A stretch of DNA of 64,000 bases from Rhizobium sp. (GTDB lineage Bacteria; Pseudomonadota; Gammaproteobacteria; Burkholderiales; Thiobacillaceae). A program made the position numbers and the translations under genes. Under the pieces are notes generated by a model, which saw only the letters and a list, made by a program, of their open reading frames with translations, searched no databases and had not been told where the DNA came from. The DNA is taken from contig JAIBEL010000033.1 of NCBI GenBank assembly GCA_019459285.1, positions 1 through 64,000 of the forward strand. Reading direction: 5' to 3'. Shown here piece after piece: positions 28,826 to 49,341 of this stretch. Each line of letters begins with the position of its first letter. The first letter of the stretch is position 1.

Positions 28826-28884
28826 GGTGTGTTGTGTCAGCGTGATACGGGATAATGTCCGCCAATATAAACGAGCTGGCCGAT

Positions 28885-28900
28885 TGGCACGAATCCTGTT
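28885..28900 (+). promoter_or_regulatory. degenerate sigma-54-like element upstream of the second sulfotransferase
   Basis: TGGCACGAATCCTGTT has a perfect -24 half (TGGCACG), but its -12 half reads CTGTT instead of TTGCW at the right spacing. A start near 28911 would leave about 40 bases to ATG 28950. Weaker than the other four sites. Confidence 0.3.
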
Positions 28901-28949
28901 TGCTAGGTTGCGGGGTGATCGGACTCCGTTTGATAACGACAGAAAGTCT

Positions 28950-29876
28950 ATGAGTTTGAGTGAATTTACTGAGAAGGTGGTCAAGACGCTGGCATTCCAT
29001 GCGCGGCGGACGCGTCGCGCCTTGCGCAGCATGCGCTGGCAGCTTTCGCCGCGGCCGGCGGAGCGCCCCATCATCGTGATCGGGTGCTCGCGGGCCGGCA
29101 CCACGCTGGTCTACAAAACCCTGTCCGAATCGCGCGAGATCGGCAGTCTGCAACGCGAGACCCACGATTACTGGACGGACCTGCACCCCCTGGCCGACAA
29201 GCACTGGGACACGCACGCGCTGGATGCAACGGATGCCAGCGCAGCCGAACGCGACGATGTCAGCCGCTACTTCTACAGCTGGACCGGCCGTCATCGATGG
29301 GTCGACAAGAACAACCAGAACGGACTGTGCGTCGCCTATCTGCGGGAACTGTTTCCCGACGCCGTGTTCGTCTTCGTCAAGCGCAGCCCCGGCGACAACC
29401 TCAATTCGCTGATCGAGGGCTGGCGCAAGCCCGACGAATTCGCCACCTGGTCGAACGACCTGCCGGCGAACGTGGCCGTCGAGGGTGGACAATTGACGCA
29501 ATGGTGCTTCTTTCTTTCCGAGGGCTGGCGCCATTACGTGAACGCGCCGGTCGAAGAGGTAGCCGCCTTCCAGTATGCCGCGGTCAACCGGGCCATCCTC
29601 GATGCCAAGGCCGGCATTCCAGCCGGGCAGTGGGTCGAGGTGTTCTACGAGGATTTCCTGCGCGATCCGGTCGCCGCCTTCCGCCAGGTATTCGAAGGCT
29701 GCGGCCTGGCCTTCGATGCGCACCTGCAGGCGCACTGCGCCGAAGTGCTCGACATTCCCTACAACGCGTTTTCCGAAATCCGCCTGGACAAATGGAAGGA
29801 TGGCCGCAACCGGGACAAGATCGAACGGGTGTTGCAGCAGGTGGCCAGCGTGGCGACGGAAATGGGGTATCGATGA
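28950..29876 (+). CDS. sulfotransferase (second of three)
   Basis: A 308-residue sulfotransferase-family protein. The 5'-phosphosulfate loop is GCSRAGTT at residues 45-52 and the 3'-phosphate segment is FVKRSPGDNLNSLIEGW near 140-156. I place the start at ATG 28950 because the open frame upstream (from 28815) shows no homology. The N-terminal 40 residues are basic and may bind membrane. It is divergent from the synthetase homologue and is the first gene of a run that ends at 31992. Confidence 0.82.
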   Translation: MSLSEFTEKVVKTLAFHARRTRRALRSMRWQLSPRPAERPIIVIGCSRAGTTLVYKTLSESREIGSLQRETHDYWTDLHPLADKHWDTHALDATDASAAERDDVSRYFYSWTGRHRWVDKNNQNGLCVAYLRELFPDAVFVFVKRSPGDNLNSLIEGWRKPDEFATWSNDLPANVAVEGGQLTQWCFFLSEGWRHYVNAPVEEVAAFQYAAVNRAILDAKAGIPAGQWVEVFYEDFLRDPVAAFRQVFEGCGLAFDAHLQAHCAEVLDIPYNAFSEIRLDKWKDGRNRDKIERVLQQVASVATEMGYR

Positions 29877-33059: not shown

Positions 33060-33258
33060 TGCAGGTTGTGAAGATTGTTCTCGGCAGTGTGCAAGGTACG
33101 AAAGGGCCAAGTCGCGGCATAAATCGCCTGATTCGGGGCAGGGCCGTTATCATTCAGGCATGCTGCATTGACATGCCCAATCCCGCAGAAATCTCAAAAC
33201 CGACAAATAACGGCTGCCGGCACCGATGACGCCATACGGCCTGCCCCTCTTACCCATC

Positions 33259-34413
33259 ATGAATCGTCTGCTCGTCCTCACCGAACTCTTTCTCCCGACC
33301 AAGGGCGGTACGGCCGTGTGGGCCGCGGAGGTATACAGGCGTCTCGGCGGCAAGGAAATCCACATCGTCACCGCCGACGTCCCTGGCGCCATGGCAGTGG
33401 ATGCGGCGCACCCCAATACGATCCACCGCCTGAGCCTCAGACGCGTGGCATGGCTGCGCCCCGAATCGCTCGCGATGTATGCCCGTTTCTTCTTCCGGTC
33501 ACTGCGATTGGCATTCACACACCGCTTCGATGCCGTGCATGCCTTCCGTGCGCTGCCGGAAGGGCTGGTGGCATGGGGTGTGGCGCGCTTGACGTTCAGG
33601 CCGGTGGCCATCTATGCCCATGGCGAAGAACTCACCAGCTGGGGGACCGGCCGGAAATTCAGGGCGATGCGGTTCGCCCTGCGCCACGCCGACCGGGTCG
33701 TCGCCAACAGCGACCATACGCGCGACACCTTGCGGGGCATGGGCGTCGACCCGGCGCGCATCACGCTCATCTATCCCGGCGTCGACGTCTCGGTATTCAG
33801 GCCGGGCCTGGATACCACCGGTTTGCGCGAGAGCCTGGGGATCGGCCCGGACGAGAAACTGCTGTTCTCGGTCGGCAGGCTGTCGCGTCGCAAAGGCTTC
33901 GACCAGATGATCCGGGCCGTGGGACGACTGCATGCCGAAGGGATGCCGCTGCGCTATGTCATTGGCGGGATAGGCGAGGATGCCGATTATCTGGACGGAT
34001 TGATCCAGGACCTTGGCCTGACGGGCGTGGTCCATCGCATCGGCCCGGTCAGGGAAGCGGATCTGCCGCGCTGGCAGAATGCCTGCGATATATTTGCCAT
34101 GCCCAACCGCGAGATCAACGGCGACAATGAAGGCTTCGGCATGGTCTTCATCGAGGCGGCTGCCTGCGGCAAACCGAGCCTGGCCGGCCTGGCCGGCGGC
34201 ACGGGATCGGCGGTCCTGCATGGCGAGACGGGGCTGCGGGTGGATGGCACATCGGTCGATGCCGTGGCAGACGGTTTGCGCAGCCTGTTGACGCAGCCGG
34301 ACTTGACCCGTGATTGGGGCCAACGCGCATTGCAGCGGGTGGAACGCGAATTTTCCTGGGAGCGGGTGGCAGAGAAAACCCGCCAACTGAACATGACAAC
34401 AACCCGGTCCTGA
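33259..34413 (+). CDS. glycosyltransferase family 4
   Basis: A 384-residue GT-B transferase (MNRLLVLTELFLPTKGGTAVW). The donor half has FSVGRLSRRKGFDQMIRAV and NREINGDNEGFGMVFIEAAACGKPS, the EX7E motif. ATG 33226 in the same frame would add 11 residues; I prefer 33259, where the first beta strand starts, but neither has a clear ribosome site. It is preceded by about 200 bases without a gene in which I see no promoter or terminator motif. Confidence 0.88.
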   Translation: MNRLLVLTELFLPTKGGTAVWAAEVYRRLGGKEIHIVTADVPGAMAVDAAHPNTIHRLSLRRVAWLRPESLAMYARFFFRSLRLAFTHRFDAVHAFRALPEGLVAWGVARLTFRPVAIYAHGEELTSWGTGRKFRAMRFALRHADRVVANSDHTRDTLRGMGVDPARITLIYPGVDVSVFRPGLDTTGLRESLGIGPDEKLLFSVGRLSRRKGFDQMIRAVGRLHAEGMPLRYVIGGIGEDADYLDGLIQDLGLTGVVHRIGPVREADLPRWQNACDIFAMPNREINGDNEGFGMVFIEAAACGKPSLAGLAGGTGSAVLHGETGLRVDGTSVDAVADGLRSLLTQPDLTRDWGQRALQRVEREFSWERVAEKTRQLNMTTTRS

Positions 34414-34422
34414 GCCGCATCC

Positions 34423-35286
34423 ATGACAGATACAGCATACCCTTGGCCCGTCGCCGTTTTTGCCCATAACGAAGCGCGCAACATCATCGCCTGCCTCGAC
34501 AGCCTGCAGGCTGCCACGACGCATCCGATCGCCTGCCATGTGCTGGCCAATGCTTGCACCGACCGGACCGAAGCGCTGGTACGCGAATATGCGGCGGATC
34601 ACCCCCATGTCCACCTCGTGTCGATCGCGCTGGGTGACAAGGCCAATGCCTGGAACGTGTTCGTGCATGAGATCGCTGTGTGTCCGGAGACGCCCTGTTT
34701 TTTCATCGACGGCGACGTGCGGGCGGTGGCCGGCTCGCTCGATGCCATGGCGCAGGCACTGGCGCAGAACCCCCAGGCCAACGGCGTGTCGGCATTGCCG
34801 CAAAGCGGCCGGGGTGTCGCGGCGTTCCAGCGTGACATGCTCAGGGACAATGGAGTAGCGGGCAACTTATATGGCTTGCGGGGAAGCTTCGTGGAACGCA
34901 TCCGCGCCCAGGCCATCAAAATGCCTGTCGGTACCATCGGCGAAGACGCGCTGATGGGCGCGATGCTGAAATGGGATTTGCAGGGGGATACCCGCTGGGA
35001 CAACAACCGGGTGGTCGTGGCGCGCGAGGCGGGGTTTGAATTCGACTCGGTGTCGCCCTGGCTGCCGCGCGAATGGAAAAAATACTTCCGGCGGCGCGTG
35101 CGCTACAGCGTGCGGGGGTATCAGAACAAAATGCTGGGGCGGGCCATCCAGCCTGCCGGGTTCACTGCACTGCCATTTCATGTGCGCGACCTGTACCCCC
35201 GTTACCCGGATGTGCTCAAGCTGGATTGGCGCGGATTGAATACCCTGTTTGACTGGCTGGCCATTCGGGAGATACGGTCGGCATGA
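34423..35286 (+). CDS. glycosyltransferase family 2-like protein
   Basis: A 287-residue GT-A-like protein. It has the VAVFAHNEARNIIACLDSLQ opening, HVLANACTDRT, and CFFIDGDVRAVAGS as the DxD region, then GEDALMGAMLKWDLQG and an Arg-rich acceptor helix (EWKKYFRRRVRYSVRGYQ). It starts 9 bases after the GT4 stop. No membrane helix is seen. The donor and acceptor are unknown. Confidence 0.82.
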   Translation: MTDTAYPWPVAVFAHNEARNIIACLDSLQAATTHPIACHVLANACTDRTEALVREYAADHPHVHLVSIALGDKANAWNVFVHEIAVCPETPCFFIDGDVRAVAGSLDAMAQALAQNPQANGVSALPQSGRGVAAFQRDMLRDNGVAGNLYGLRGSFVERIRAQAIKMPVGTIGEDALMGAMLKWDLQGDTRWDNNRVVVAREAGFEFDSVSPWLPREWKKYFRRRVRYSVRGYQNKMLGRAIQPAGFTALPFHVRDLYPRYPDVLKLDWRGLNTLFDWLAIREIRSA

Positions 35287-35317
35287 CGGAATCGAGATGA
35301 TTGAGAAAGGACGTGCG

Positions 35318-36091
35318 ATGAAGACGCTCACCAAGTTGATGCTGGGACTGGCAGGACTTGTCATGGCCCTGCCCGCTGCGGCGGAATGGAAGCCAAGCCC
35401 GGCGGAGATGGCCACGCTCCCGCCTTATTGTGCGGCGCGTTTCGATGAAAAATCGGAAGCGTTCAGGAGCTGGCGGGATTCCATGGGATCCGATTTCATG
35501 CACGTCCATCATTACTGTGCCGGACTCAATTTCGTGAACCGGGCGCGCGGCATGGGGTCGTCCAACAAGGACCGGCAGGGCACACTGGAAGCGGCGCTGC
35601 GCAACTTCGATTACATGCTGGCCCATACCCACCCGGATTTTTCCCTGCGTCCCGAAATCCTCATGAATCGCGGCATTGCCCTGTCGATGATGAAGCGGAC
35701 GGGCGAAGCGGTCGGGGATCTGATGAAAGCGATCGAAGCGGATCCGAAACAGCCCCGGGCCTACATGACGCTGGCAGACATGTACAGCCAGCAAAAGAAT
35801 CGCGCCAAGGCCCTGGAGACCGTCACCGAGGGCCTGCGTCACAACCCCGACACCAAGAGCCTGCAACGGCGCTATACCGAACTGGGCGGCAAGCTGCCGT
35901 ATCCGGCCCCTGTCGAGCCTGCGCCGGTCGCCGTTCAGGCGGGCACAGACGCCACACCGACACCCGATGCGGGTTCCACGCCGCCCGTCGAATCGGCTGA
36001 CAGCGCATCGCCGTCTTCGGCCGAGACGTCTGCAGCGCCGCCCAAAATCGGCTCGCCGACCAATCCCTACTGCCGCTTCTGCCCGGATTGA
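35318..36091 (+). CDS. secreted TPR-repeat protein
   Basis: A 257-residue protein with a signal peptide ending LPAAA. About two to three tetratricopeptide units follow (ALRNFDYMLAHTHPDFSL, PEILMNRGIALSMMKRTGEAV, PRAYMTLADMYSQQKNRAKAL), then a Pro/Ala/Thr-rich linker and a short tail NPYCRFCPD with a CxxC pair. AAAGGA upstream of ATG 35318 is a good ribosome site. TPR proteins in XrtA loci often scaffold periplasmic assembly. Its stop codon is immediately adjacent to the stop of the convergent gene. Confidence 0.8.
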   Translation: MKTLTKLMLGLAGLVMALPAAAEWKPSPAEMATLPPYCAARFDEKSEAFRSWRDSMGSDFMHVHHYCAGLNFVNRARGMGSSNKDRQGTLEAALRNFDYMLAHTHPDFSLRPEILMNRGIALSMMKRTGEAVGDLMKAIEADPKQPRAYMTLADMYSQQKNRAKALETVTEGLRHNPDTKSLQRRYTELGGKLPYPAPVEPAPVAVQAGTDATPTPDAGSTPPVESADSASPSSAETSAAPPKIGSPTNPYCRFCPD

Positions 36092-39000
36092 TCAAGGGTG
36101 GGCGCGCTGTCGCGACGCCTGGACGAAGGCCTGCAACCGGGCCCATAAATCCGCCTTCAGCTGCGGGTGGTGCGCCGACACGTCGTGCTGGCAGGCGGGG
36201 TCGGTTTCCAGGTCGAACAGGCTGAGCACATGGCCTGTCTCGAGCGGTTGATAAACCAGTTTCCAGCGGCCGCTTCGGATCATGCGGTCCTTGGCGTCGA
36301 GGATGGCGTTGCAGTATTCGGACTTGATCGCCAGGGCGCCGCTGGCGCGATCCGGCACCTCCATCAGTTCCAGCAGGTTGGGATAGCGCAGGTGCGCATC
36401 CGGCAGGCCGGGAATATGCGCGATCCAGATGCCGGTTTCATTGAAGGCGTCGAGTTCGGGGCAGTCGCCGTCCAGCTCCATGCAGCCCGCGAGCGATACC
36501 CCGTCCACGCTGGCGACGGGCGGTGCTCCGACGAGTTCAAGCAACGTGGGAGCAAGGTCGATCGAGCGCACCACCTGTTCCACCGTGCCGCGTGCCGGAC
36601 GGCCGGGGGCGCGGATGACGAGTGGAATGCGTGGGCTGAAATCGCCGACGGCGGAATTGCCCTGTCCCCAGGTGTCGTGCTCGAAAAACTCCATGCCGTG
36701 GTCGGAGTAGACGACGATGATCGTATGGTCGGCCAGGCCGCAGACCTCCAGATGCGCCAGCATCTTGCCGACTTCGTCGTCGAACTCCGCCACGCAGCCG
36801 TCGTACAAGTCGATGATCTGGTCGAGATCGAATTCCTCCCTGGGTGCGCCCTGGCGCCGGATGATTTCGAACGGGTCCGTGAGCCGGGCCATCGCGAATT
36901 TTGATTCGCCACCATAGCCCGAGTTGGCGAAGCGCGTATACCACGGCCATTCCGAGGCAAAGGGCGGGTGCGTGGTGGAGTAGAACACGTTGAGGAAGAA
37001 CGGCTGTGCGTTTTCCGCCAGGCGCGACACCAGCCGCCGGGCGCGTTTGCCGAGCGGCTGCGTGAGTGGTACTCCGCCCAGGTAGTACACCTCGGGCAGA
37101 AGCAGCCGCCCCAGCCGGTTATGGACAAACAGGGAAACGAACAGGCGCAAATCCTTGGGGCCCTGACGGATAAGGTATTTCAGGTTCCACTGATCTTCCG
37201 GCAGGTCGGTGTAGTCGAAGCCGAAGGAGAATTTCCCCATGTCGGCACCGCACCAGTCCGAGATCGCCGCGGTACGATAGCCGGCCTGTTTCAGCCACAC
37301 GGGCAGGGCATCCACGCTCAGCCGCGTGGCCTCGTGGTCCGCATAGTTGTCGCGGATGCCGTGGGTGTGGGGCCAGGTGCCGGTCAGCATGGAGATCAGG
37401 CTCGGCGCTGTGCGCGCGCACGGCACATAGCAGTTGGCGAAGAGTGCGCCGCGCTCGCCCAGTCGGTCGATATGGGGCGTCAGCATGCGGCGATACCCCA
37501 GCGCGCCCAAGCGGTCGGCGCGCAGCGTATCGGATCCGATCATGAGGATGTTGGGCTGCGAATCCGGCGTGCGCGCAGAACGCTTGCGCGGCGCGCGCGC
37601 CTCGGGTTGCCAGGCGGCCCACACGATCGTCCCGGCAAAGAATAGCGTGGCCGCCCACAGGGCCATCAGGGTGGCCAAGCGGTTTTCCTTCGCCAGCTGC
37701 CAGGAGGCCGCCACGAACAATAGCCCGATCAGGACGATCCCCAGAGTCTGCAACCGGACGATGCGTGCCGGCGTCATGGCATGCCAGAGTCGATAGAGCC
37801 GACTCATGCGGTAATGCATCGACGCCGCCAGCAGTCCGGGATTGAAACGCAGCTTGCGGATGAATTGCAGCCCGAAACCGCCGAGGATGCCGAGCAGTGC
37901 GGCGATGGCGGCCAGCCATGCCGACCAGCCTGTGCCCGTCACTGTGGCAAGCATGAAATAGAGCAGCACGCCGGCTCCCCCGGTGAAAAGCATGAGCGCA
38001 AAGGCCCAGGTCGTCAGGCGTGCCAGCGAAAACAGCGTATAGCGGCGGTAATGCTTGAGCACTTCGTCGCGAATGCGGGGACCGGTATGCGAAAAATCGA
38101 GCAGCGATTTGGCGAGCAGGGCGGCCGTGCCGATCCCGGCTACGCCCAAGGCGGGAAGCAGGCCGGTCCAGCGCGCGTCGCCGCTGGCGAACCAGGCGAT
38201 CAGGCCGCAGACAGCGGTGAACAAGGCCAGCGATTCGGTGAGCACGATGCCGCGGTCGGGGGGGAGTTCCAGATTCTTGCCGCGATGCCCCGACTCGCGG
38301 CAGCCCTGGATCTCGCCCAGTGCCGCCGCGGTGCGCACCCAGTAAAAACGCCGTTTGGCCCACGACAGACTGAATGCGCTGTGGGCGCCATACTCGGCCA
38401 GCTTGCGCCACATGTACAAGGGAACCGAGCCGCTGCCACGGAGGCGGGCGGTCGAGCGGGTTCGTTGATAGCTTTTTTTCAGGAGATAGCCGAGCCGGAG
38501 CCGTTCCGTATCGACATAGTGGTACTGCACGATGGCCGGCGCATATTGACAGTGCTCGCCACGCGCCAGGGCACGCAATACGTATTCGCTGTCCTCGCCA
38601 CCTCCGAGATCGTGGCCGTGCGGTCCCAGCTCGGTGGAAAACTGGCCGGCCAATTCAAACACGCGTCGGCGCACGACCAGATTGCCGCCGCCCGGTATCG
38701 GGCCAGCCTCGGCCGTGACGGCCCGTGGCGTATCGCCCTGGTCGTAGCGCGGAACCGGCAGCGGATAGATGCGGTAGGGGCCGTCGTCGTGTACCCAGGC
38801 AGGCTCGCTGCCATCCCAATCCGGCAAAATCCTTCCGCAGTAGAGGCCGGCCTCCGGCCAGTCCGTGGCGGCCTGCTCGATGGCCGCCAAATAGTTATCG
38901 TCCACCCGATGGTCGTCGTCCACCAGGGCAATGAGTTCGGTTTCGATGGTCGGGATGGCGGCATTCAGCGCATGGGATTTCCCTGGTGTGGGTACGTCGA

Positions 39001-39205
39001 GCACCTGCAGCGGCAAACCGTTTTCGGTCGCCTGGCGAGCCTGGTACGCCTGCATCTGCGCCACGGTGTCGTCGCTGCAGGCATTGGCCGCCACCAGGAT
39101 GTGCACGGGCATAACGGGGCGGCGCGCCCGGTTGAGCGACGCCAGGGTCTTTTGCAGCAGGTCCGCCCGGTTGTGGGTGCAGATGAGGATGGTGAGCGCG
39201 GTCAC
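36092..39205 (-). CDS. fusion of GT2 glycosyltransferase and membrane alkaline-phosphatase-superfamily (sulfatase-like) domain
   Basis: A 1037-residue protein. Residues 1 to about 300 are a GT-A GT2 domain (ILICTHNRADLLQKTLASL, ALVDDDHRVDD, GGGEDSEYVLRAL). About six hydrophobic segments lie between 325 and 535. From about 555 an alkaline-phosphatase-superfamily domain follows: metal site GSDTLRADRLG, nucleophile segment TAPSLISMLTG, and SDHGMEFFEHDTWGQG. The nucleophile position is Thr599; the formylglycine Cys of true sulfatases is absent, as in LtaS/EptA-like transferases. It starts at GTG 39205 (GTGA overlap with the previous gene) and ends the minus-strand operon. Confidence 0.85.
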   Translation of the reverse strand: MTALTILICTHNRADLLQKTLASLNRARRPVMPVHILVAANACSDDTVAQMQAYQARQATENGLPLQVLDVPTPGKSHALNAAIPTIETELIALVDDDHRVDDNYLAAIEQAATDWPEAGLYCGRILPDWDGSEPAWVHDDGPYRIYPLPVPRYDQGDTPRAVTAEAGPIPGGGNLVVRRRVFELAGQFSTELGPHGHDLGGGEDSEYVLRALARGEHCQYAPAIVQYHYVDTERLRLGYLLKKSYQRTRSTARLRGSGSVPLYMWRKLAEYGAHSAFSLSWAKRRFYWVRTAAALGEIQGCRESGHRGKNLELPPDRGIVLTESLALFTAVCGLIAWFASGDARWTGLLPALGVAGIGTAALLAKSLLDFSHTGPRIRDEVLKHYRRYTLFSLARLTTWAFALMLFTGGAGVLLYFMLATVTGTGWSAWLAAIAALLGILGGFGLQFIRKLRFNPGLLAASMHYRMSRLYRLWHAMTPARIVRLQTLGIVLIGLLFVAASWQLAKENRLATLMALWAATLFFAGTIVWAAWQPEARAPRKRSARTPDSQPNILMIGSDTLRADRLGALGYRRMLTPHIDRLGERGALFANCYVPCARTAPSLISMLTGTWPHTHGIRDNYADHEATRLSVDALPVWLKQAGYRTAAISDWCGADMGKFSFGFDYTDLPEDQWNLKYLIRQGPKDLRLFVSLFVHNRLGRLLLPEVYYLGGVPLTQPLGKRARRLVSRLAENAQPFFLNVFYSTTHPPFASEWPWYTRFANSGYGGESKFAMARLTDPFEIIRRQGAPREEFDLDQIIDLYDGCVAEFDDEVGKMLAHLEVCGLADHTIIVVYSDHGMEFFEHDTWGQGNSAVGDFSPRIPLVIRAPGRPARGTVEQVVRSIDLAPTLLELVGAPPVASVDGVSLAGCMELDGDCPELDAFNETGIWIAHIPGLPDAHLRYPNLLELMEVPDRASGALAIKSEYCNAILDAKDRMIRSGRWKLVYQPLETGHVLSLFDLETDPACQHDVSAHHPQLKADLWARLQAFVQASRQRAHP

Positions 39206-40170
39206 GCGAGTGCCCGTCGGGTACGTTTCCAGAAACGGGTCAGTACCTTGTTATGCAGGCGGTAGGCGGCTTTCACGGCGAGGGCGGGCGGCGTGCCCGG
39301 CGTGACCAGATCGTAGCCGAACTCGCGCAACGTCCTCCCGGCCACGCTTTCGAAGGCCCTGATCTGGGCTGGCGTCATCTTGCTGCGCCATTTTCCCGCG
39401 TTGTCGGCTTTCAGGGGTTCATGCACCAGCGGGGTCTTGCCAGGGTCGTCCACCGACGTGACGGCAAACAGCTCGGCCGAGTAGGGTTCGCCCAGAAACG
39501 CGCAAATCCGTTGCATGCTGTCTTCGGGGTGCGCAAGCAAATCCTCGTAGCGCAACTCCATGTATTGCCGGGGCGGCAATTGGCTTCCCAGTGCGCGGCC
39601 TTTCTCCACGTAGCTCTCCCAGTATTCCGCCGCGAAATACGTGTTGTACACGGAGAAGTCGTGCTGTCTGCCGAACAGCGACAGGGCGACATCGCGCCCG
39701 TCGCGGATCAGATGCACGATCTGGGCATCGGGAAACCACTCGAGCAGCTTGGGGAGATGCATCACGTAATAGGGGGTCTTGTCGCCCCACCTGGATTTCC
39801 CTTCGCCTTGTGCGTTTTTCTCGAACAGCCCCGAGATGATCGCCGGCATCGTGTGCCGGCCTTCGGCATGAAGTTCTCGGGTCAACCGGTCGACATCGAA
39901 TTTCACGCCGTGCAGATCGGTCTCCAGAAAGTCCCGGCTTTGTTCATGCATGGCTTGCAGCACGCGACGGGTATTGTCCACCCGGCGGAGATCGCCAAAA
40001 CTTTCCAGGTTGCGGTACAGCGGGATGAAGAAATGCGATTCCCCGGTGGGGAGCGAAATGTGCGGGTGATTGCGCAGCCGATACTGCAGCATGGTGGTGC
40101 CGGAGCGCGGTGCCCCGACGATGAAGATCGGGCCTTGCTGACGTGATGGGGACGGGAAAGGCGAGGTCAC
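39202..40170 (-). CDS. sulfotransferase (third of three)
   Basis: A 322-residue sulfotransferase. The 5'-phosphosulfate loop GAPRSGTT is at residues 19-26, the 3'-phosphate segment LIRDGRDVALSLFG lies near 150-163, and the RWGDKTPYYV motif is typical of bacterial sulfotransferase family 3. It starts with GTG at 40170, overlapping the upstream stop (GTGA), and its own stop overlaps the fusion gene. Cytoplasmic. Together with the phosphatase-fold protein downstream it suggests ester-group decoration of the polymer. Confidence 0.87.
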   Translation of the reverse strand: MTSPFPSPSRQQGPIFIVGAPRSGTTMLQYRLRNHPHISLPTGESHFFIPLYRNLESFGDLRRVDNTRRVLQAMHEQSRDFLETDLHGVKFDVDRLTRELHAEGRHTMPAIISGLFEKNAQGEGKSRWGDKTPYYVMHLPKLLEWFPDAQIVHLIRDGRDVALSLFGRQHDFSVYNTYFAAEYWESYVEKGRALGSQLPPRQYMELRYEDLLAHPEDSMQRICAFLGEPYSAELFAVTSVDDPGKTPLVHEPLKADNAGKWRSKMTPAQIRAFESVAGRTLREFGYDLVTPGTPPALAVKAAYRLHNKVLTRFWKRTRRALA

Positions 40171-41009
40171 GTGGAGGTTCCAGTCAAACGAACGTATCTG
40201 AATAGGGTATGGGGCATGAGGCTGTATCGCGGGAAAACGGAGCGAATACGCCAGTGCTGCCGCTGCACCCAGCGGTTTCGCTGCACCGCCTTGCGCCAGG
40301 TGTTCGCGTCATGCCTGGAGGCCAGCTGGCTCAATGTGTGCAATCGTACATCGGGCTGCTGGCGAAGCCATCGAAACAGATCCGAGAGTTGCTCGAGCGT
40401 CAACGGTGCATCGGTGCGCCCGGATTCCTGAAAGTCGTAATGGTGCATGACGGCCACGATGGCCAGATCGCCGTGCGGATGGCGTCGCGCTTCGGCGAGC
40501 GCCGGACGGAGTTCGGTGAGCTGACAGGTGCGCGGAAGCTCGGTGAGACGGCCGGATTCGACCGATCCGTGTTCGCTGCCCGCCGAGAGGTAGAGGAAAC
40601 CCTGCTCGGACAGCACGGCAGCGGTGATGCGGTCGAAGGTATTGAACGGCGGAACGAATCCCGGGATTGCACAACCAAATACCTGTCCAAGCGTCGCCCG
40701 GCCGGCCACGATTTTCTTCGTTTGCTCCGCCGGATCAAGGCCGGCGAATTCGGAAGGGAGGCTGGCCTCAGGTTGACAGGGGTCATGGCTGAACCCGTGC
40801 TGGGCGATTTCCATCCTGCCGGATTGCCATGCCTCGACGAGGTGAGGCACATCGTCGGCAGACAAGGCGTGCTGTCCGGCATGCGGAATGACCGCAAAGG
40901 TGGCACAAACATCGTGCATGGCCATGGCATGCAATATTCCGCGCTCAAGTGCATGGTCGCTGACCGCGGATGGATCATCGAAGCGAATGGCGACGTCGAT
41001 CATGGTCAC
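40167..41009 (-). CDS. polysaccharide deacetylase family protein
   Basis: About 280 residues with the NodB fold. The metal Asp pair is in AIRFDDPSA and the metal histidines are in IAQHGFSHDP; GFVPPFNTFD replaces the usual RxPYG motif, as in the DUF2334-like branch. A terminal His is in HHYDFQESG. GTG 41009 gives a GTGA overlap; ATG 41003 is an alternative start. No signal peptide. It should act on a cytoplasmic or membrane-bound glycan intermediate. Confidence 0.82.
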   Translation of the reverse strand: MTMIDVAIRFDDPSAVSDHALERGILHAMAMHDVCATFAVIPHAGQHALSADDVPHLVEAWQSGRMEIAQHGFSHDPCQPEASLPSEFAGLDPAEQTKKIVAGRATLGQVFGCAIPGFVPPFNTFDRITAAVLSEQGFLYLSAGSEHGSVESGRLTELPRTCQLTELRPALAEARRHPHGDLAIVAVMHHYDFQESGRTDAPLTLEQLSDLFRWLRQQPDVRLHTLSQLASRHDANTWRKAVQRNRWVQRQHWRIRSVFPRYSLMPHTLFRYVRLTGTST

Positions 41010-41932
41010 GCCCCGGACCGGTTCCGGTAGCCTTGCAGGCTGCCCAGCGCATGGGCAGCATTCATCGCCTGGCGGATCAGCCCGGGCCGCCCGCTGATGG
41101 CCAGCTTCAATGTCCGGCCGCAGTGATTCAGAAACTGGGTGACCATGAAAGGGGGCATCCCGAATAGCGTTTTAGGGTAATCAGGTAGGGCATACTGGCC
41201 ATTCCGCACGCCAGCCAGATAATGAAGCCTCAGGAAATAGCTGGCTTTCAGTTTCCAGGGGTCCACGCTGTGTGTGACGGCCATATCAGGCCGATAGCGG
41301 ATTCTTGTGCCTAGATCGAGAAGCGTGCGAAGCATCATGGCATCTTCGCCACCGCCGATTCCATCACCTTCGCGGTTGTACCGCAAATCGAAATGCAAAT
41401 CAGGATGGTCGCGAAAGAGCTGCATTGCATAAGCCGTATTGCCGCTCCAGATGGGCGTTGAGGTGTCGCTAAGCCACTGGGGTGCCTTGCCGTGATCAAG
41501 CCGGCCAAGAAAACCAGCCACGTTGTCATCCAGCCAGGCCGGCCGGCCATATGGGCTGAAATCGATTTCGATGCGGCCACCTACGCATTGCGCACCTTCG
41601 TTCACGATGGCGTCGAAGGCTGCATTCAGGAAATCAGGCTGTGGAATCTCATCATCATCGATGAATGCCAGTATGTCGCTCGAGATCGCTTCAGCCAACG
41701 CACGATTGCGTGCGGGCACGATGCCCGGTGCCGTTTCGGTCACAAAGCGGAGGGGAGTGCCGGGTTGTCGTTGCAGATGCGCCAATACTTCTAGCGTGTT
41801 GTCAGGGCTATTGTTGTTGATCGCCAGAATTTCGAAAGGAACGGGGCAAGTCTGAGCACGCATCGCCGCGACGAGTTTTTCCAGGCGGTCAGCACGGTTA
41901 TAGGTACAAAAAGCGAAGGTAAGCACAGGCAT
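41006..41932 (-). CDS. glycosyltransferase family 2
   Basis: A 308-residue GT-A transferase opening TFAFCTYNRADRLEKLV. The DxD region is ILAFIDDDEIPQPDFL, followed by GGRIEIDFSPYGRPAW and GGGEDAMMLRTLLDLG. This pattern is shared with the GT2 half of the fusion protein at 36092-39205 (both have the GGGED motif), so the two probably use similar acceptors. It begins 9 bases from the end of the next upstream gene. Confidence 0.9.
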   Translation of the reverse strand: MPVLTFAFCTYNRADRLEKLVAAMRAQTCPVPFEILAINNNSPDNTLEVLAHLQRQPGTPLRFVTETAPGIVPARNRALAEAISSDILAFIDDDEIPQPDFLNAAFDAIVNEGAQCVGGRIEIDFSPYGRPAWLDDNVAGFLGRLDHGKAPQWLSDTSTPIWSGNTAYAMQLFRDHPDLHFDLRYNREGDGIGGGEDAMMLRTLLDLGTRIRYRPDMAVTHSVDPWKLKASYFLRLHYLAGVRNGQYALPDYPKTLFGMPPFMVTQFLNHCGRTLKLAISGRPGLIRQAMNAAHALGSLQGYRNRSGA

Positions 41933-41941
41933 GACGATGGT

Positions 41942-42910
41942 TCAGATGGAATTGCGCGTGCTGCGCCGGGTATCGATCATCCGGATCAGCGATTCGAATG
42001 CCGATGCAGGCAAGAAACTGGCCAGGATGTATTTGGCATCGCGTGCCTTCCATTCGGTCTTGCGGGACGCGCGACGGAACAGGCGCCGTGCGGAATCGGT
42101 ATCGCGCCGCCAATGGCAGCGATAGGCCTCGGGCAGCAGCGAGCCATATACCCGGTCATCACGTTCGGCCCGGCTGAGATGGGCGACCTGGGCGGGATGC
42201 CGGCGGACGAAGTCCTCGCGCACGGCAATGGCATCGAAGACCTGGCGCCAGCGCGGGATATGCGCATTGCCGCGCGGATAGCGGCGATAGAACGCCAGCA
42301 CCTCGGGGACGCGCACCACTGTGGGCTGGAGGGCGAGCATGCGCAGCCACATGTCGTAGTCCATGGCAGTGGGCAGACGTTCCGAAAATCCGCGCAAGGT
42401 GTCGATAAGTTGACGTCGCACCAGGACGCCATTGATCGGCCATGGACAGGATTGCAGGAACAGGCCGGCGGCATCCGATTGGACATAGTCGGGCGGGATG
42501 TAGGGATGGGTGCTGGCGGCGGCCTCCCCTACGTTTTGCCAGCCGCAATACGCCACATCGGCGAGAGTTTCCGTCATCGCGGCATGCAGCCGGTTGAGTG
42601 CGTCGGGGTGCCAGTAATCGTCCGCATCCAGAAACGCGACGAAATTGCCACGCGCATGGGACAGGCCGTGATTGCGCGCCGCATAGGGACCGCTGTTGGT
42701 CTGGTGCAGCACGGTGATGCGGTCGGGGTTGCCTGCCGCCAGGCGTTCGACGATCCGCATGGACGCATCGTTCGACCCGTCGTCCACGACGATGAGTTCG
42801 ACATTCCGGTAGCTTTGCTGCAGAACGCACTCGATCGCTTCTTCCACGTAGGGCGCGGCGTTGTAGCAGGGCATGACAACGGAGATCAGCGTGGGGTCGA
42901 AGTTGTCCAT
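41942..42910 (-). CDS. glycosyltransferase family 2 (tandem paralogue A)
   Basis: A 322-residue GT-A transferase: SVVMPCYNAAPYVEEAIEC, VVDDGSND, and AFLDADDYWHPDAL as the DxD region. The segments YIPPDYVQSD, PWPINGVLVRRQLID and MDYDMWLRM are closely matched in the next gene upstream (42921-43868), which points to a tandem duplication. Ten bases separate the two. Confidence 0.9.
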   Translation of the reverse strand: MDNFDPTLISVVMPCYNAAPYVEEAIECVLQQSYRNVELIVVDDGSNDASMRIVERLAAGNPDRITVLHQTNSGPYAARNHGLSHARGNFVAFLDADDYWHPDALNRLHAAMTETLADVAYCGWQNVGEAAASTHPYIPPDYVQSDAAGLFLQSCPWPINGVLVRRQLIDTLRGFSERLPTAMDYDMWLRMLALQPTVVRVPEVLAFYRRYPRGNAHIPRWRQVFDAIAVREDFVRRHPAQVAHLSRAERDDRVYGSLLPEAYRCHWRRDTDSARRLFRRASRKTEWKARDAKYILASFLPASAFESLIRMIDTRRSTRNSI

Positions 42911-42920
42911 ACGGTTGTAT

Positions 42921-43868
42921 TTATGTATTCCGGTCTCGCAACCCGATCAGCCTCCGATGCCAGGATTCGGGCAGCCAGGCGGGCAACATGTATTTCCAGT
43001 CGGTGAGTGTGCCATAGCCTTGTTTCATGACCGTACGAAAAATTTGCCGCGCGGCGGGCAGGTCACGCTGCCAGTAACACGCGTAACCGCGCTTGAGCAG
43101 TTCGCCTATCGTCAGATCGCGGATATGAGATTTTCCGAGTGAGGTGTCGAGCCCCGGATGGGCTGTCAGGAATTTCTGCTGAGCGCGCCAATGATTCATG
43201 GCGATCCTGGCTTTGTTTCGGGTGATCTGCTCTCCACCATGGTGATGGTAATAGGCTAGTACGCGCGGCACGCGAACGAGTCGATGAATAGTGCCAAGAC
43301 GAAGCCAGAGATCGAAATCCATACATGAGCTTAAAGTCTCGTCAAAGCAGCCCGCCTCCAGAATGAGCTGGCTGTGTACTAGCGCACCATGAATTGGCCA
43401 GCGGCATCCTCCAAGTAGCGACTCAATCTTGTTTTTATTTTCATATTCGGGTGGGATGAATGGATCATCGCGTGCGCCTCCCAAGCCAATGTTCCGCCAG
43501 CCGCAATATGCGATTCCGGCAGCGGGATCGGCATTGAGCGCAGTCACCATAGCGTCAAGAAATTCAGGGTGCCAGGTGTCGTCGGAATCCAGGAACGCAA
43601 CATACGCCCCGCGTGCTTCCCGCAACGCGCGATTGCGAGCGGCTGCGGCTCCGGCGTTGACCTGCTGGAATATCCGTATGCGGTTGTCCTGAGCGGCAAA
43701 ACGCTGGAGTGTTTGCCAGGAATGATCAGTAGAACCGTCGTCGACGACCACCAGTTCCCAGTCACTTCGGGTTTGTGCCAGCACGCTGCCGATACTGATT
43801 GGCAAATAGGCTTCTGCGTTATAGCAGGGCATGACGATAGAAATGGTTTTGAGTCCGGTTTCAGTCAT
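42921..43868 (-). CDS. glycosyltransferase family 2 (tandem paralogue B)
   Basis: A 315-residue GT-A transferase: SIVMPCYNAEAYLPISIGS, VVDDGSTD, AFLDSDDTWHPEFL. FIPPEYENKN, WPIHGALVHSQLI and MDFDLWLRL match the paralogue downstream. Base composition is lower in GC than the copy at 41942-42910, so the two copies have either diverged or come from different sources. The start overlaps the end of the methyltransferase gene. Confidence 0.9.
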   Translation of the reverse strand: MTETGLKTISIVMPCYNAEAYLPISIGSVLAQTRSDWELVVVDDGSTDHSWQTLQRFAAQDNRIRIFQQVNAGAAAARNRALREARGAYVAFLDSDDTWHPEFLDAMVTALNADPAAGIAYCGWRNIGLGGARDDPFIPPEYENKNKIESLLGGCRWPIHGALVHSQLILEAGCFDETLSSCMDFDLWLRLGTIHRLVRVPRVLAYYHHHGGEQITRNKARIAMNHWRAQQKFLTAHPGLDTSLGKSHIRDLTIGELLKRGYACYWQRDLPAARQIFRTVMKQGYGTLTDWKYMLPAWLPESWHRRLIGLRDRNT

Positions 43869-44871
43869 GCTTGGAGGCGGCCAATCGCCATAAAAGAGGA
43901 AGATGACTGAGTCGTTTTCTTAAAGCCCGGCTAATTCCTTGTCTAGTCAAGCTGGGATATTTTAAGGCGTGTACAAGCTGTGCAGAATAAGAAGGTTTTA
44001 GGTAGTGGAGTGTTTCTCGTGGCCCGGATAGGGGGGGAGCCAACTGGGACAAAGCATTATCCGGTCTTGCGAAAGCCCGAATTGCTTTACCAATGCCACC
44101 CTCCTCGGTGGTGTAAAGTCCTTCCTTGCACGAGAATACGCTAAAGCCTGCTCTCGCTATGAGATGGCGCAGTGAGGCCGGAGTGAAGTAGTTAATATGC
44201 GTAACAGGTTCGACGGGCAGCGGGGGGCGCTTCCAAATTTCCAAGGGAACTTCAATATAGAGCGTGCCAGTCTCCAGAAGGAAGGGCTTGAGGTTGGCAA
44301 CAAGCTTAAAGGGCTCTGCCAGGTGTTCTAGAACGTGGCTACAAATGATGGCGTCAAATCTTTGTCCTTGAGAGATGTCGCTCAAACTCTTTCCCATGTA
44401 ATGGACCCCGGGTAGTGTTTCACCCGCGTAATCAACAAGGCAGCAATGGTGGCCATCTGAGACGAATGGCCTTAACAACCGGCCATTGCCACCGCCGAAA
44501 TCAAGTATCGATGCCTGTCGAGGGAGTAAAGGCTGCAGGTGTCGGTAGAGATCGGCAGCCCTATGTTCATCACTTTCCAGAACTCGAGATATTTCATTCC
44601 CTGTTTCGGGATCGGTCGCCAGGAATTTGTATTTGGCGTTGATGTCCTCTTCGCTAGGGCGGGGCAAGTAACAGACAAAACCGCATCTTTCACAGACCAC
44701 GGAAGTTAGCGTAACGCTTGCCTCGCCTGGAAACCAGACCTTGAATAACACAGTAAGACGCTTGTTGACATAGGGATTCATGCGGCCGACGTGCTCAGTG
44801 GAATAGGTTCGATCACCTAGTTTTCTCCACATTCTTCCATCGCAAGCGGGGCAGTTTGGATTTTGGTCCAT
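43861..44871 (-). CDS. class I SAM-dependent methyltransferase with N-terminal zinc-ribbon
   Basis: A 336-residue protein starting MDQNPNCPACDG. An N-terminal CxxC...CxxC ribbon (CPAC; CERCGF) is followed by a class I methyltransferase domain with ILDFGGGNGRLLRPF (SAM motif I) and FDAIICSHVLEHL. This layout is common for sugar C- or O-methyltransferases of polysaccharide loci. I choose ATG 44871 because CAGGAG ends right at ATG 44877, leaving a 6-base spacer to 44871. The gene is visibly more AT-rich than its surroundings. Confidence 0.83.
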   Translation of the reverse strand: MDQNPNCPACDGRMWRKLGDRTYSTEHVGRMNPYVNKRLTVLFKVWFPGEASVTLTSVVCERCGFVCYLPRPSEEDINAKYKFLATDPETGNEISRVLESDEHRAADLYRHLQPLLPRQASILDFGGGNGRLLRPFVSDGHHCCLVDYAGETLPGVHYMGKSLSDISQGQRFDAIICSHVLEHLAEPFKLVANLKPFLLETGTLYIEVPLEIWKRPPLPVEPVTHINYFTPASLRHLIARAGFSVFSCKEGLYTTEEGGIGKAIRAFARPDNALSQLAPPLSGPRETLHYLKPSYSAQLVHALKYPSLTRQGISRALRKRLSHLPLLWRLAASKHD

Positions 44872-44873
44872 TG

Positions 44874-45671
44874 TCATCTCCTGAATCGCTTGAGCATGTA
44901 TTCAAGCATTGCTCTCCAGCTTCCGTCATTGGTGGCCAGCGCCTGTTTGCGTGCCAACGAGCCAACCGTGTCCGTGTTGAAGACTGTCAATCTCCGCAAC
45001 TTATAAAGGCTATTGTCACGCAAGGCCCAGCCGGTGCGCGTGGTGCAGGCGGAGACGTAGCCAGCCTGTTCGACCGCCGCTGCGCAGCGTTCATCCCATG
45101 CGCCATAGGGATAGGCAAAGCTGGTGATGGTGTTTCCCAGAATGTCTTCCAGCTTGGATTTTGAGTCGGTCAATTCATGCATCAGTTGCGGGTCATCGAC
45201 TTCGGTCAGGCGTACATGACTGACCGTGTGCGAGCCAATTTCCATGCCACTTTCTTGCATGCTGCACAGTTCGACTGGGTTCAACAGCCGACCTGGAGGC
45301 CGTCCATCTGCAGGCCATCGAGGTGGAAGGCCGACTGAACCAGAAACGATGAACCAAGTGGCGCGCATGCCGCGCTTCTGGAGTTCTTCACAAGCTGCAA
45401 GGTTGTCTACGTAGCCATCGTCGAAAGTGATGACCGCGGTACGTCCTGTCCATTTTTCTGCGGGTACTGATACCAATTCGCCCATGGTCGGCGTGGCATA
45501 GCCTTCCATGACCAGAAAATCGAGCTGATCGCGGAACTGTTGCATGGAAACGGCCCATGGCCAGGCTGGCGCGCCCTTGCCCGGTGTAACGGCGTGATAC
45601 ATCAGCATGATGGGTCCGTGCTGGCCGGCTTGGTTGTGAAGGGCACGCGACAGAGGATCGACCCAGGTCAT
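44874..45671 (-). CDS. polysaccharide deacetylase
   Basis: A 265-residue NodB-fold deacetylase with intact motifs: IMLMYHAVTPG, VITFDDGYVDN (metal Asp pair), IGSHTVSHVRLTEV (HxxxH) and FAYPYGAWDE. A C-terminal RLTVFNTDTV segment carries the usual strand. There is no signal peptide. The start overlaps the flippase stop (ATGA). It is the most canonical of the four deacetylase-type proteins in the window. Confidence 0.9.
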   Translation of the reverse strand: MTWVDPLSRALHNQAGQHGPIMLMYHAVTPGKGAPAWPWAVSMQQFRDQLDFLVMEGYATPTMGELVSVPAEKWTGRTAVITFDDGYVDNLAACEELQKRGMRATWFIVSGSVGLPPRWPADGRPPGRLLNPVELCSMQESGMEIGSHTVSHVRLTEVDDPQLMHELTDSKSKLEDILGNTITSFAYPYGAWDERCAAAVEQAGYVSACTTRTGWALRDNSLYKLRRLTVFNTDTVGSLARKQALATNDGSWRAMLEYMLKRFRR

Positions 45672-47134
45672 GCGGTGGCCTTGGCAAGTTTGAGTTTGAT
45701 TTTCCAGCGGGTGGTTTCTGCGACGAGCGCTGGGATGGGAAGATATAAAAAGCAGAGGGTATAAATCAGCCCTCCTATAGTGGCCATGAGTAATACATAC
45801 AACGCATCAACCGACTGGAGGGATGGCGGGATGAAGCGGTCGACAAGCCACAGGGTGCCAAGCAGAATGGAATTGAGCAGTGCGGCTGGCATGAAAGCCG
45901 TCGCCAGATCAATCCATCGGGCCTTGAGCGACAGTTTGGCTAGCACGAACATATGAATACTCATATAAAGTCGAGCAACCACCATTCCCGCAGCCACGCC
46001 GTTCATTCCGTAAGTCAGGCCGACTAAAATAGCCGCTGTCGCCACGGCAATTACGATAAGTTGCGCGATCAGCTCCTTGCCCAGCCAGCTGCGTGCGGCC
46101 AGAACGGCGCCGGATAGGTTCTCGATCATCATCATGGGTGCGGCGAAGCTCAGGATAACCAGAGGTGTGGCTGAATCGGCCCAGCGGTGGCCGAACAGCG
46201 TGACGACCAGCGGCTTCGCCAGCCACAGAAAACCGACATAGAACGGCAGGGCATAGACGGCTACAAGCGTGAGGCTGCGAAAGAACAGATAGCGGGATTT
46301 GTCCAGGTTGCCTTGTTCCTTGGCCAGCGCGCGGAACAGGACTTCATACACTGAACCGGTGATGAATCCGTGTGGGCGTGCCGCCAGGCTTTCGGCCTTG
46401 TTGTACAGGCCTACTCCGGCTGGCCCCATGCTGCGCGACAGGATGAAAGTGGGCAACTGGCTGCGTACATAACAAGCGATGTTGTTCGTGGAAGCCAAGA
46501 GTCCATAGCGCATCAATTCGCCCGCTCGTGCAAAATCGAAGCAGATGCCGGGGCGCCAGCGTGCATACCAGGCAAACTGAAGGGCGCCAGCCACCGAGCT
46601 GAACAGTCCGGCGAGGATCAGGCTCCAGGGGCCGTGGCCGAGGTAGGCCAGGCTCAAGGCAATGCTGTTGTAGACCACCAGGTTGGCTAGCTGTACCGCC
46701 GTCTTGGCTTTGAAGCGCATTTCCCGATGCAACATGTTGCTGGGTACGTTAAAAAATGGACGCACCAGGAAAGACAGGGCTGCCACGCGCAGCAGATCGG
46801 CATACATCGGGTTCGCGTACCAGCGCCCGAACCAGGGTGCGATGACGAAGAAGAAACTGACAATCACCAGTCCGATGAGGAATTGCAGCGTGAACAGCAG
46901 ATCGTAGTCACGCTTGCTGGCTTCCTTGGCGCGTACGATGGCTTGTCCCATCCCGCCGCCGGCAACGAATCCGGCCAGACTGGTGAAGATCTGGATGGTC
47001 GCTACCATGCCGAATTCGGCCGGAACCAAGAGGCGCGCAAGAATTAGCCCCAGCGCAAAACTGATGACCTGGCTGCCGGTGTTGCCGATGAAGACCCACT
47101 TGGCGCCATGGCGGATGGAATGGCCAAGGCTCAT
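45668..47134 (-). CDS. Wzx-type lipopolysaccharide/exopolysaccharide flippase (MOP superfamily)
   Basis: A 488-residue polytopic membrane protein with about twelve to fourteen helices, opening with the basic amphipathic HSIRHGAKWVFIGNTGSQVI and carrying LLVPAEFGMVATIQIFTSL, as in the Wzx/PST family. It should flip the undecaprenol-linked repeat unit for the second operon. A sigma-54-like element with one mismatch lies just upstream at 47182-47197, with about 36 bases from the predicted start site to the ATG. Confidence 0.9.
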   Translation of the reverse strand: MSLGHSIRHGAKWVFIGNTGSQVISFALGLILARLLVPAEFGMVATIQIFTSLAGFVAGGGMGQAIVRAKEASKRDYDLLFTLQFLIGLVIVSFFFVIAPWFGRWYANPMYADLLRVAALSFLVRPFFNVPSNMLHREMRFKAKTAVQLANLVVYNSIALSLAYLGHGPWSLILAGLFSSVAGALQFAWYARWRPGICFDFARAGELMRYGLLASTNNIACYVRSQLPTFILSRSMGPAGVGLYNKAESLAARPHGFITGSVYEVLFRALAKEQGNLDKSRYLFFRSLTLVAVYALPFYVGFLWLAKPLVVTLFGHRWADSATPLVILSFAAPMMMIENLSGAVLAARSWLGKELIAQLIVIAVATAAILVGLTYGMNGVAAGMVVARLYMSIHMFVLAKLSLKARWIDLATAFMPAALLNSILLGTLWLVDRFIPPSLQSVDALYVLLMATIGGLIYTLCFLYLPIPALVAETTRWKIKLKLAKATA

Positions 47135-49274: not shown

Positions 49275-49341
49275 CACCCCTCCTGTTTCGTAACGATGGT
49301 CAGGTTAGTCTGTAGAAATTGATGTGCTGGCGTATTGGTTG

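What the first reader, a model, noticed from the sequence alone, without database searches (positions are those of the whole stretch)
36092..39205. GT2 glycosyltransferase fused through a membrane domain to a phosphatase-fold domain with Thr nucleophile
Seen: one 1037-residue frame combining GT2, about six membrane segments, and an alkaline-phosphatase-superfamily domain. The sulfatase nucleophile motif CxPSR is replaced by Thr599-Ala-Pro-Ser-Leu. Known: LtaS, EptA and OpgB/MdoB-type enzymes use Thr and transfer phospho-groups, whereas sulfatases need formylglycine from Cys or Ser. Inference: rather than removing sulfate, the protein may make a glycan and then add a phospho-substituent (phosphoglycerol or phosphoethanolamine), joining synthesis and modification across the membrane. 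I know of no described enzyme with this layout.
Basis: partly seen in the sequence, partly recalled or inferred. Interest (0 to 1): 0.8.

Follow-up and report, generated by a model that had tools for sequence, protein, structure and literature searches.

The report
Sugar-transfer enzyme with phosphotransferase-like tail
A sulfur bacterium carries one long membrane protein that joins a sugar-adding enzyme to a tail shaped like a sulfatase whose key residue has become one typical of phosphate-transferring enzymes, and in related bacteria the sugar-adding end has been swapped repeatedly while the tail stayed much the same.

Summary
Window 36092-39205 (minus strand) is one 1037-residue frame: GT2 (5-167), six membrane helices (318-531) and a sulfatase/PMH-fold alkaline-phosphatase-superfamily (AP) domain (549-1037). 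Thr599 sits at the catalytic-Cys position (Thr in 88 of 88 rows; in 18 controls 11 Cys, 5 Thr, 2 unaligned). Metal ligands are kept, sulfate-site residues lost. The fusion is genuine: 63 of 79 related loci carry it full length. Two EPS papers list the gene only as 'sulfatase (wbbL)'.

New here: (i) membrane+AP is a chassis on which at least three GT2 head types alternate (12 changes on the AP tree where 2 would suffice); (ii) unfused chassis genes exist, several beside a separate GT2 gene; (iii) even helix count, a first helix typical of the fused form, and one relative running on into a CDP-glycerol-type glycerophosphotransferase domain favour an AP domain on the cytosolic side with the GT, not across the membrane.

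Best reading: Thr-dependent phospho-transfer to a lipid-linked EPS precursor. Chemistry, donor and topology are inferred; six divergent solo homologues have charge patterns pointing the other way.

The parts
36092..39205 (-). Fusion gene: GT2 head, six-helix membrane part, AP-superfamily domain (1037 aa, GTG start)
38306..39205 (-). GT2 head, residues 1-300; the part exchanged between relatives
   Evidence: PF00535 at 5-167; head types
37562..38293 (-). Membrane part of the chassis, residues 305-548, six helices at 318-531
36095..37561 (-). AP-superfamily domain of sulfatase/PMH fold, residues 549-1037
37409..37411 (-). Codon of Thr599, the residue at the nucleophile position (motif R-T-A-P-S-L, residues 598-603)
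   Evidence: Thr in 88 of 88 rows; aligned with the catalytic Cys of controls; codon checked
39202..40170 (-). Sulfotransferase gene (PF13469) directly upstream; its TGA overlaps the GTG of the fusion gene (GTGA), suggesting translational coupling
   Evidence: overlap read
35249..36091 (+). Convergent TPR-repeat gene; its stop codon abuts the stop of the fusion gene
33226..34413 (+). Convergent GT4-type glycosyltransferase gene, the conserved flank of the locus (73-93% identity in most relatives measured)
40167..47134 (-). Rest of the upstream EPS operon: deacetylase-like (40167-41009), three GT2 genes (41006-43868), methyltransferase (43861-44877), polysaccharide deacetylase (44874-45671), flippase-type protein (45668-47134)

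Best explanation
A bifunctional EPS-assembly enzyme. The GT2 head adds one sugar to a lipid-linked EPS precursor on the cytosolic face of the inner membrane. The membrane+AP chassis is a single-metal, Thr-nucleophile AP-superfamily enzyme that carries out phospho-transfer (for example phosphoglycerol or phosphoethanolamine, perhaps from a phospholipid) onto the same class of precursor before it is flipped out. Since heads are exchanged while the chassis is kept, the chassis should act on something shared by different polysaccharides (a carrier-linked core sugar, the carrier phosphate or a chain end) rather than on the sugar the head adds. Shown: fusion, Thr at the nucleophile site, conserved metal ligands, loss of sulfate-site residues, head exchange, six helices in the model. 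Inferred: activity, transfer rather than hydrolysis, donor, acceptor, cytosolic side.
For: T599, R598 and D559 identical in 88 of 88 rows, D835 and H836 in 87 of 88 with one gap; Thr also in all 15 solo chassis proteins aligned. At the same column 11 of 18 control proteins have Cys and 5 Thr, 2 do not align; all 5 Thr-type controls share the preceding Arg and none of the 11 Cys-type do. The sulfatase Arg (11 of 11 Cys-type controls) is Leu603. Fusion conserved across genera. Unfused chassis genes with a GT2 gene nearby. Head exchange on a kept chassis. Even helix number, first helix tied to the fused form, glycerophosphotransferase domain joined after the AP domain in L054. GT2, sulfotransferase, deacetylase and flippase-type genes in the operon.
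Against: No activity has been measured. The profile and fold neighbours are sulfatases and PMHs, some of which hydrolyse rather than transfer. The passages found on Thauera MZ1T EPS list four sugars and no phosphate. Six divergent solo homologues have loop charges that fit a periplasmic AP domain. The L054 fusion is a single case. The convergent TPR gene next to the fusion is itself variable (38-64% to the window), so the constant side of the locus is not uniformly constant.
Confidence: 0.42

Rival explanations
1. Hydrolase: the AP domain is a Thr-dependent phosphodiesterase or phosphatase that trims, proofreads or recycles a phosphorylated glycan, nucleotide or lipid intermediate rather than transferring a group.
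For: PF01663 type I phosphodiesterase match (E 2.9e-13); fold close to PMH; the DHGM motif is like that of nucleotide pyrophosphatases (recalled).
Against: Only one metal site is evident from the conserved residues, as in known transferases of this superfamily (recalled); coupling to a GT2 in one polypeptide fits synthesis better (inference).
Confidence: 0.25
2. One reading: phospho-transfer as above, but with the AP domain in the periplasm, acting after export as in LtaS, EptA or OpgB.
For: Solo forms have five predicted helices, as three of the four Thr-type control membrane proteins do; loop charges of six divergent solo proteins fit a periplasmic AP domain.
Against: Six helices and a cytosolic GT put the AP domain in the cytosol; the first helix is found in 45 of 46 parsed fused proteins and 1 of 12 parsed solo ones; K/R counts on the AP-side loops of fused proteins are 3.9, 6.0 and 3.8 against 0.8, 0.2 and 1.2 (AP-side loops are longer); L054.
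Confidence: 0.17
3. Pseudo-enzyme: the AP domain no longer catalyses and serves as a binding or scaffold domain for the EPS assembly machinery.
For: Loss of the sulfate-site residues; the chassis tolerates different heads.
Against: Nucleophile and metal-ligand positions are invariant in the 47-row set while the membrane part falls to 27% identity.
Confidence: 0.1
4. Sulfatase: the domain removes sulfate put on by the neighbouring sulfotransferase.
For: Sulfotransferase-like genes upstream in 36 of 65 loci with at least three same-strand upstream genes; PF00884 and SGSH_C matches; two FGE-like genes in the genome.
Against: Thr cannot become formylglycine (established knowledge); the Arg of the sulfate site is Leu603 and the Lys column is Asp650.
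Confidence: 0.03

Closest known systems
'Sulfatase (wbbL)' Tmz1t_3253 of Thauera aminoaromatica MZ1T and RGS1_10427 of Rubrivivax gelatinosus (PMC4784049, PMC3684757; passages seen)
   Same: Very probably orthologues: gene order in L073 (T. aminoaromatica S2) agrees with the MZ1T map for GT2, deacetylase, GT2, one gene called hypothetical there, GT2, fusion.
   Different: Only tabulated there; the passages seen do not discuss the fusion, the Thr or a function. The MZ1T and Rubrivivax sequences themselves were not fetched.
LtaS / EptA / OpgB-type phospho-transferases
   Same: AP superfamily, membrane anchored, Thr at the nucleophile position, D/H metal ligands.
   Different: Weak profile match (LtaS 27 bits against a cut-off of 970); GT2 fusion; AP domain probably on the other side of the membrane.
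BcsA + BcsG (pEtN cellulose; PMC11470070 seen as listing and start of abstract only)
   Same: A GT2 polymer synthase working with an AP-superfamily phospho-transferase on an EPS (recalled and abstract).
   Different: Separate proteins, periplasmic transferase (recalled); BcsG was not compared here.
Phosphonate monoester hydrolases and sulfatases (4uph, 2w8s, 7pth, 6hr5)
   Same: Fold of the whole AP domain, Z 30-35 over 360-404 residues in the 50 listed rows.
   Different: Those use formylglycine from Cys (recalled; Cys in controls); here Thr, with the sulfate-site Arg and Lys replaced.

Membership tests
Glycosyltransferase family 2 (head) | PF00535 above its cut-off and the acidic GT2 motifs | tested here: met
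   50.3 bits against 23.3; D96-D97-D98 and E204-D205 invariant in the 47-row set
AP superfamily / PF00884 (tail) | PF00884 above its cut-off with nucleophile and metal ligands | tested here: met
   158.9 bits against 25; D559, T599, D835, H836 conserved
Type I sulfatase | Cys or Ser nucleophile in C/S-x-P-S-R with the sulfate-site residues | tested here: not met
   Thr599 and Leu603 (88 and 87 of 88 rows); Cys and Arg in 11 of 11 Cys-type controls
PMH / PehA | Formylglycine Cys and the NCBIfam PehA cut-off | tested here: not met
   Thr at the site; 101 bits against 900
LtaS-type lipoteichoic acid synthase | NCBIfam LtaS model above its cut-off | tested here: not met
   27 bits against 970
LtaS / EptA / OpgB-type transferase | Thr nucleophile position | tested here: met
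LtaS / EptA / OpgB-type transferase | Catalytic domain outside the cytoplasm | tested here: inconclusive
   Helix parity, first helix and L054 speak for the cytosol; six divergent solo homologues speak against
LtaS / EptA / OpgB-type transferase | Similar fold in solved structures | tested here: inconclusive
   Not among the 50 listed rows of a list filled by sulfatases
LtaS / EptA / OpgB-type transferase | Transfer of a phospholipid headgroup | not testable with these tools
   needs biochemistry

The most novel reading that the evidence does not exclude
A previously undescribed class of cytoplasm-facing, Thr-nucleophile AP-superfamily phospho-transferase, inverted in the membrane relative to LtaS/EptA, that serves as a chassis onto which different GT2 heads are swapped by recombination at the edge of the variable EPS region, so that each strain's EPS precursor receives a strain-specific sugar and a shared phospho-mark from one polypeptide before export.
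Probability: 0.3. Interest if true: 0.78.

Novelty: new variant of a known kind. Interest (0 to 1): 0.6.

Why it matters
If the chemistry holds, a bacterial EPS would receive a phospho-substituent at the lipid-linked stage from the same polypeptide that adds a sugar, which would change charge and metal binding of floc and biofilm matrices in wastewater and sulfur-oxidising bacteria. Head exchange shows how an EPS locus can change one glycosyl step by a crossover inside a gene while keeping a shared module. It also makes testable why a 'sulfatase' sits in the Thauera and Rubrivivax floc clusters: it is very unlikely to be one.

Tried and rejected
Chance frame: rejected, the fusion is conserved down to 48% identity. 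Assembly artefact joining two genes: rejected, independent genomes agree. Broken or odd rows seen: one TAG within the match in G026, a frame break in L034, one TAG in G301 and one TGA in G111. True sulfatase: rejected on residues. Phage origin: phrog_19870 matches the AP domain, but the 17 phage records found are all under 60% identity (12 listed, 20-29%); none was fetched. LtaS/EptA folds are not among the 50 listed structure rows; this excludes nothing.

Positive-inside as sole proof of topology: rejected. In 16 solo proteins mean K/R is 9.8 in the three AP-side loops and 2.7 in the two short loops of the other side, so about equal per residue, and L092, L107, L109, L112, L113 and L114 point the other way. 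As controls three of four Thr-type membrane proteins parsed as five helices with the usual periplasmic pattern; the fourth (L139) parsed with four. The second AlphaFold2 job (L041, B head) modelled the head badly (pLDDT under 50 over most of 1-227); only the chassis and an added helix pair (228-247, 253-277) are used, and a further helix at 282-313 is less hydrophobic. No coordinates were available, so no active-site distances were measured. Cys652 is no special mark: 2 of 11 Cys-type controls also have Cys in that column, and 6 of 11 have His. The column of the second sulfatase Lys (Gln848) is only loosely aligned: Lys in 5 of 11 Cys-type controls.

Rows dropped: L061, L062, L066 and L114 failed the motif used to cut the AP domain and are not in the tree (64 rows kept). 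L065, first counted with the second head type, stands apart (41-44% to the others) and was left out of the recount, which did not alter the 12 changes. In the TM1 count L051 was not parsed among fused proteins, and of 16 solo proteins L102 and L107 gave no motif while L092 and L115 were cut at the wrong place; for L110, L114 and L072 the frame leaves no room upstream. The trees are quick ones: 22 of 61 and 17 of 46 inner branches are under 80, with long solo branches. Shuffled head labels need about 14.5 changes on average and reach 12 or fewer in 11 of 200, so heads are only slightly clustered on the AP tree.

Literature: nine answered searches showed no described GT2-AP fusion in the held library; PMC4784049 and PMC3684757 were seen as passages only, other papers as listings and abstract starts.
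Full report
OBSERVATION. The 1037-residue frame lies on the minus strand, 36092-39205, GTG start. Pfam finds GT2 at 5-167 and Sulfatase at 551-893. The host is close to Thiobacillus: the best named matches are 97% to T. denitrificans UBA2410 and 96% to T. thioparus DSM 505 (best segments). The gene is the last of a minus-strand EPS operon (flippase-type protein, deacetylases, GT2 genes, methyltransferase, sulfotransferase). It starts on a GTGA overlap with the sulfotransferase stop, and its stop abuts that of a convergent TPR gene.

IS IT REAL. Of 79 loci fetched with the protein, 63 hold a frame matching from the first 10 residues to beyond residue 950, 5 hold the chassis with another GT2 head, L072 has the halves as two genes, and 10 are cut by contig ends or broken. 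They come from Thiobacillus, Candidatus Nitrotoga, Thauera, Aromatoleum, Sulfuriferula and unnamed relatives.

ACTIVE SITE. In 88 rows (window and relatives, near-copies included) D559, R598, T599, A600 and P601 are invariant; D835 and H836 are the same in 87, with one gap. In the 47-row set R598, T599, D559, D835 and H836 are invariant. Eighteen other PF00884-type proteins from related genomes served as control: at the T599 column 11 have Cys, 5 Thr, 2 do not align. All 5 Thr-type controls have Arg just before the Thr, as this family does; none of the 11 Cys-type do. The 15 solo chassis proteins in the same alignment all have Thr. The Arg of the sulfate site (11 of 11 Cys-type controls) is Leu603 and the Lys column (Lys in 8 of 11) is Asp650; the His column (His in 6 of 11) is Cys652, and the second Lys column, Gln848, is loosely aligned (the roles of these columns in arylsulfatase are recalled). 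The own genome has this single PF00884 match and two FGE-like genes.

FOLD. AlphaFold2 on 47 aligned sequences gave mean pLDDT 85. Foldseek and VIA-align put the AP domain closest to sulfatases, choline sulfatases and phosphonate monoester hydrolases (50 rows listed, Z 30-35, 360-404 residues aligned, 19-27% identity). The domain thus has a sulfatase/PMH-branch fold with a Thr-type active site.

MODULARITY. The C-terminal part (six helices plus AP) is kept while the GT2 head is not. In five loci (L041, L043, L044, L052, L057) the head is of another GT2 subfamily, about 68-90% alike among the five, while the chassis is 68-79% identical to the window. Among the 47 fused rows 35 have a head at least 50% identical to the window's and 12 less; 11 of these 12 form a second type (56-89% among themselves), and L065 stands apart. 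Eight of the 11 have 40-43% head identity but 76-85% AP identity to the window. The identity step falls near residues 300-330, just before or in TM1. On the AP tree the head type changes 12 times where 2 would suffice (47 labelled rows: 31, 11 and 5), both with solo rows in the tree and without; starred branches alone force at least 7 changes for the second type and 2 for the third. These are quick trees with many weak branches, so the exact number is unsure. The convergent GT4 gene is 73-82% identical to the window in 12 of the 13 second- and third-type loci measured (none held for L057), and 61 of 70 loci with enough sequence have convergent TPR or GT4 genes in the first five downstream. The TPR gene between them is itself variable (38-64%). 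I read this as the edge of the variable EPS region running through the gene; that recombination causes the exchange is inference.

UNFUSED FORMS. A chassis profile matches 21 of 369 genomes of the class, own genome included, at E 1e-40: 8 fused (one with the B head) and 13 solo by frame and BLAST. It matches only the own genome among 398 drawn from the phylum. Five of the 13 solo genes have a GT2 gene 43-52% identical to the window's head in the short stretch fetched; L072 and L091 too have separate GT2 and chassis genes. In L072 the chassis ATG follows the GT2 stop by six bases. Two neighbouring genes therefore probably became one, although the tree has no sure root.

TOPOLOGY. Six helices put GT and AP on one side, the cytosol for a nucleotide-sugar GT. 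The first helix scores as hydrophobic in 45 of 46 parsed fused proteins; an equivalent exists in 1 of 12 parsed solo proteins, L106, as if fusion needed it to keep the chassis orientation. The B-head model adds a helix pair, which keeps the parity even (weak head model). In fused proteins the AP-side loops carry on average 3.9, 6.0 and 3.8 K/R against 0.8, 0.2 and 1.2, but they are also longer. L054 (Candidatus Nitrotoga sp. 1052) runs on in frame into a PF04464 CDP-glycerol glycerophosphotransferase domain (E 7.7e-12, residues 1218-1365). Such domains use cytosolic CDP-glycerol (recalled), which would place the AP C-terminus in the cytosol in that protein. Against: it is one case, a possible in-frame GTG start follows the junction, the extension was found in no other fetched locus, and six divergent solo proteins have charges fitting a periplasmic AP domain. 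I put the cytosolic side at about three in four for the fused form.

CONTEXT AND PRIOR KNOWLEDGE. Sulfotransferase-like genes occur upstream in 36 of 65 loci with at least three same-strand upstream genes, so many of these EPS may be sulfated. Two papers list the gene as 'sulfatase (wbbL)': Tmz1t_3253 in the Thauera MZ1T floc cluster (PMC4784049) and RGS1_10427 in Rubrivivax psc1 (PMC3684757); only passages were seen. Gene order in L073 agrees with the MZ1T map. The MZ1T EPS is described as rhamnose, galacturonic acid, GlcNAc and FucNAc; the passages found mention no phosphate on it, which neither supports nor excludes a small substituent. wbbL is a rhamnosyltransferase name (recalled).

MECHANISM. 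Most likely the head adds a sugar and the chassis carries out Thr-dependent phospho-transfer on a part of the lipid-linked precursor common to several EPS types. Hydrolysis is the main alternative. The layout is a new variant within the AP superfamily rather than a new superfamily.

Noticed in passing
L054:8922-13280: Triple fusion GT2 - six helices - AP - CDP-glycerol glycerophosphotransferase-like domain (PF04464) in Candidatus Nitrotoga sp. 1052; an acyltransferase-like gene starts just behind it.
   Followed up: partly
L132:276-2378 (relatives in L136, L138): Another five-helix PF00884 membrane protein of Thiobacillus-group genomes with Thr in an R-T-F-P-A-W motif, no curated family reached; it may be the nearest Thr-type kin of the chassis (best match of L132 in the own genome is the fusion gene, 28% identity).
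   Followed up: partly
L092, L107, L109, L112, L113, L114 (solo chassis): Divergent solo homologues whose loop charges point to the opposite membrane orientation; a possible flip of topology within one family.
   Followed up: no
window 20761-21702, 28815-29876, 39202-40170: Three Sulfotransfer_3 genes in one EPS region of a sulfur oxidiser; of four such genes in the genome three lie in this window.
   Followed up: no
window 48072-49277 (-): 401-residue protein with an S-G-G-V-D-S motif (PP-loop-like, recalled) and no Pfam or NCBIfam match, inside the EPS region.
   Followed up: no
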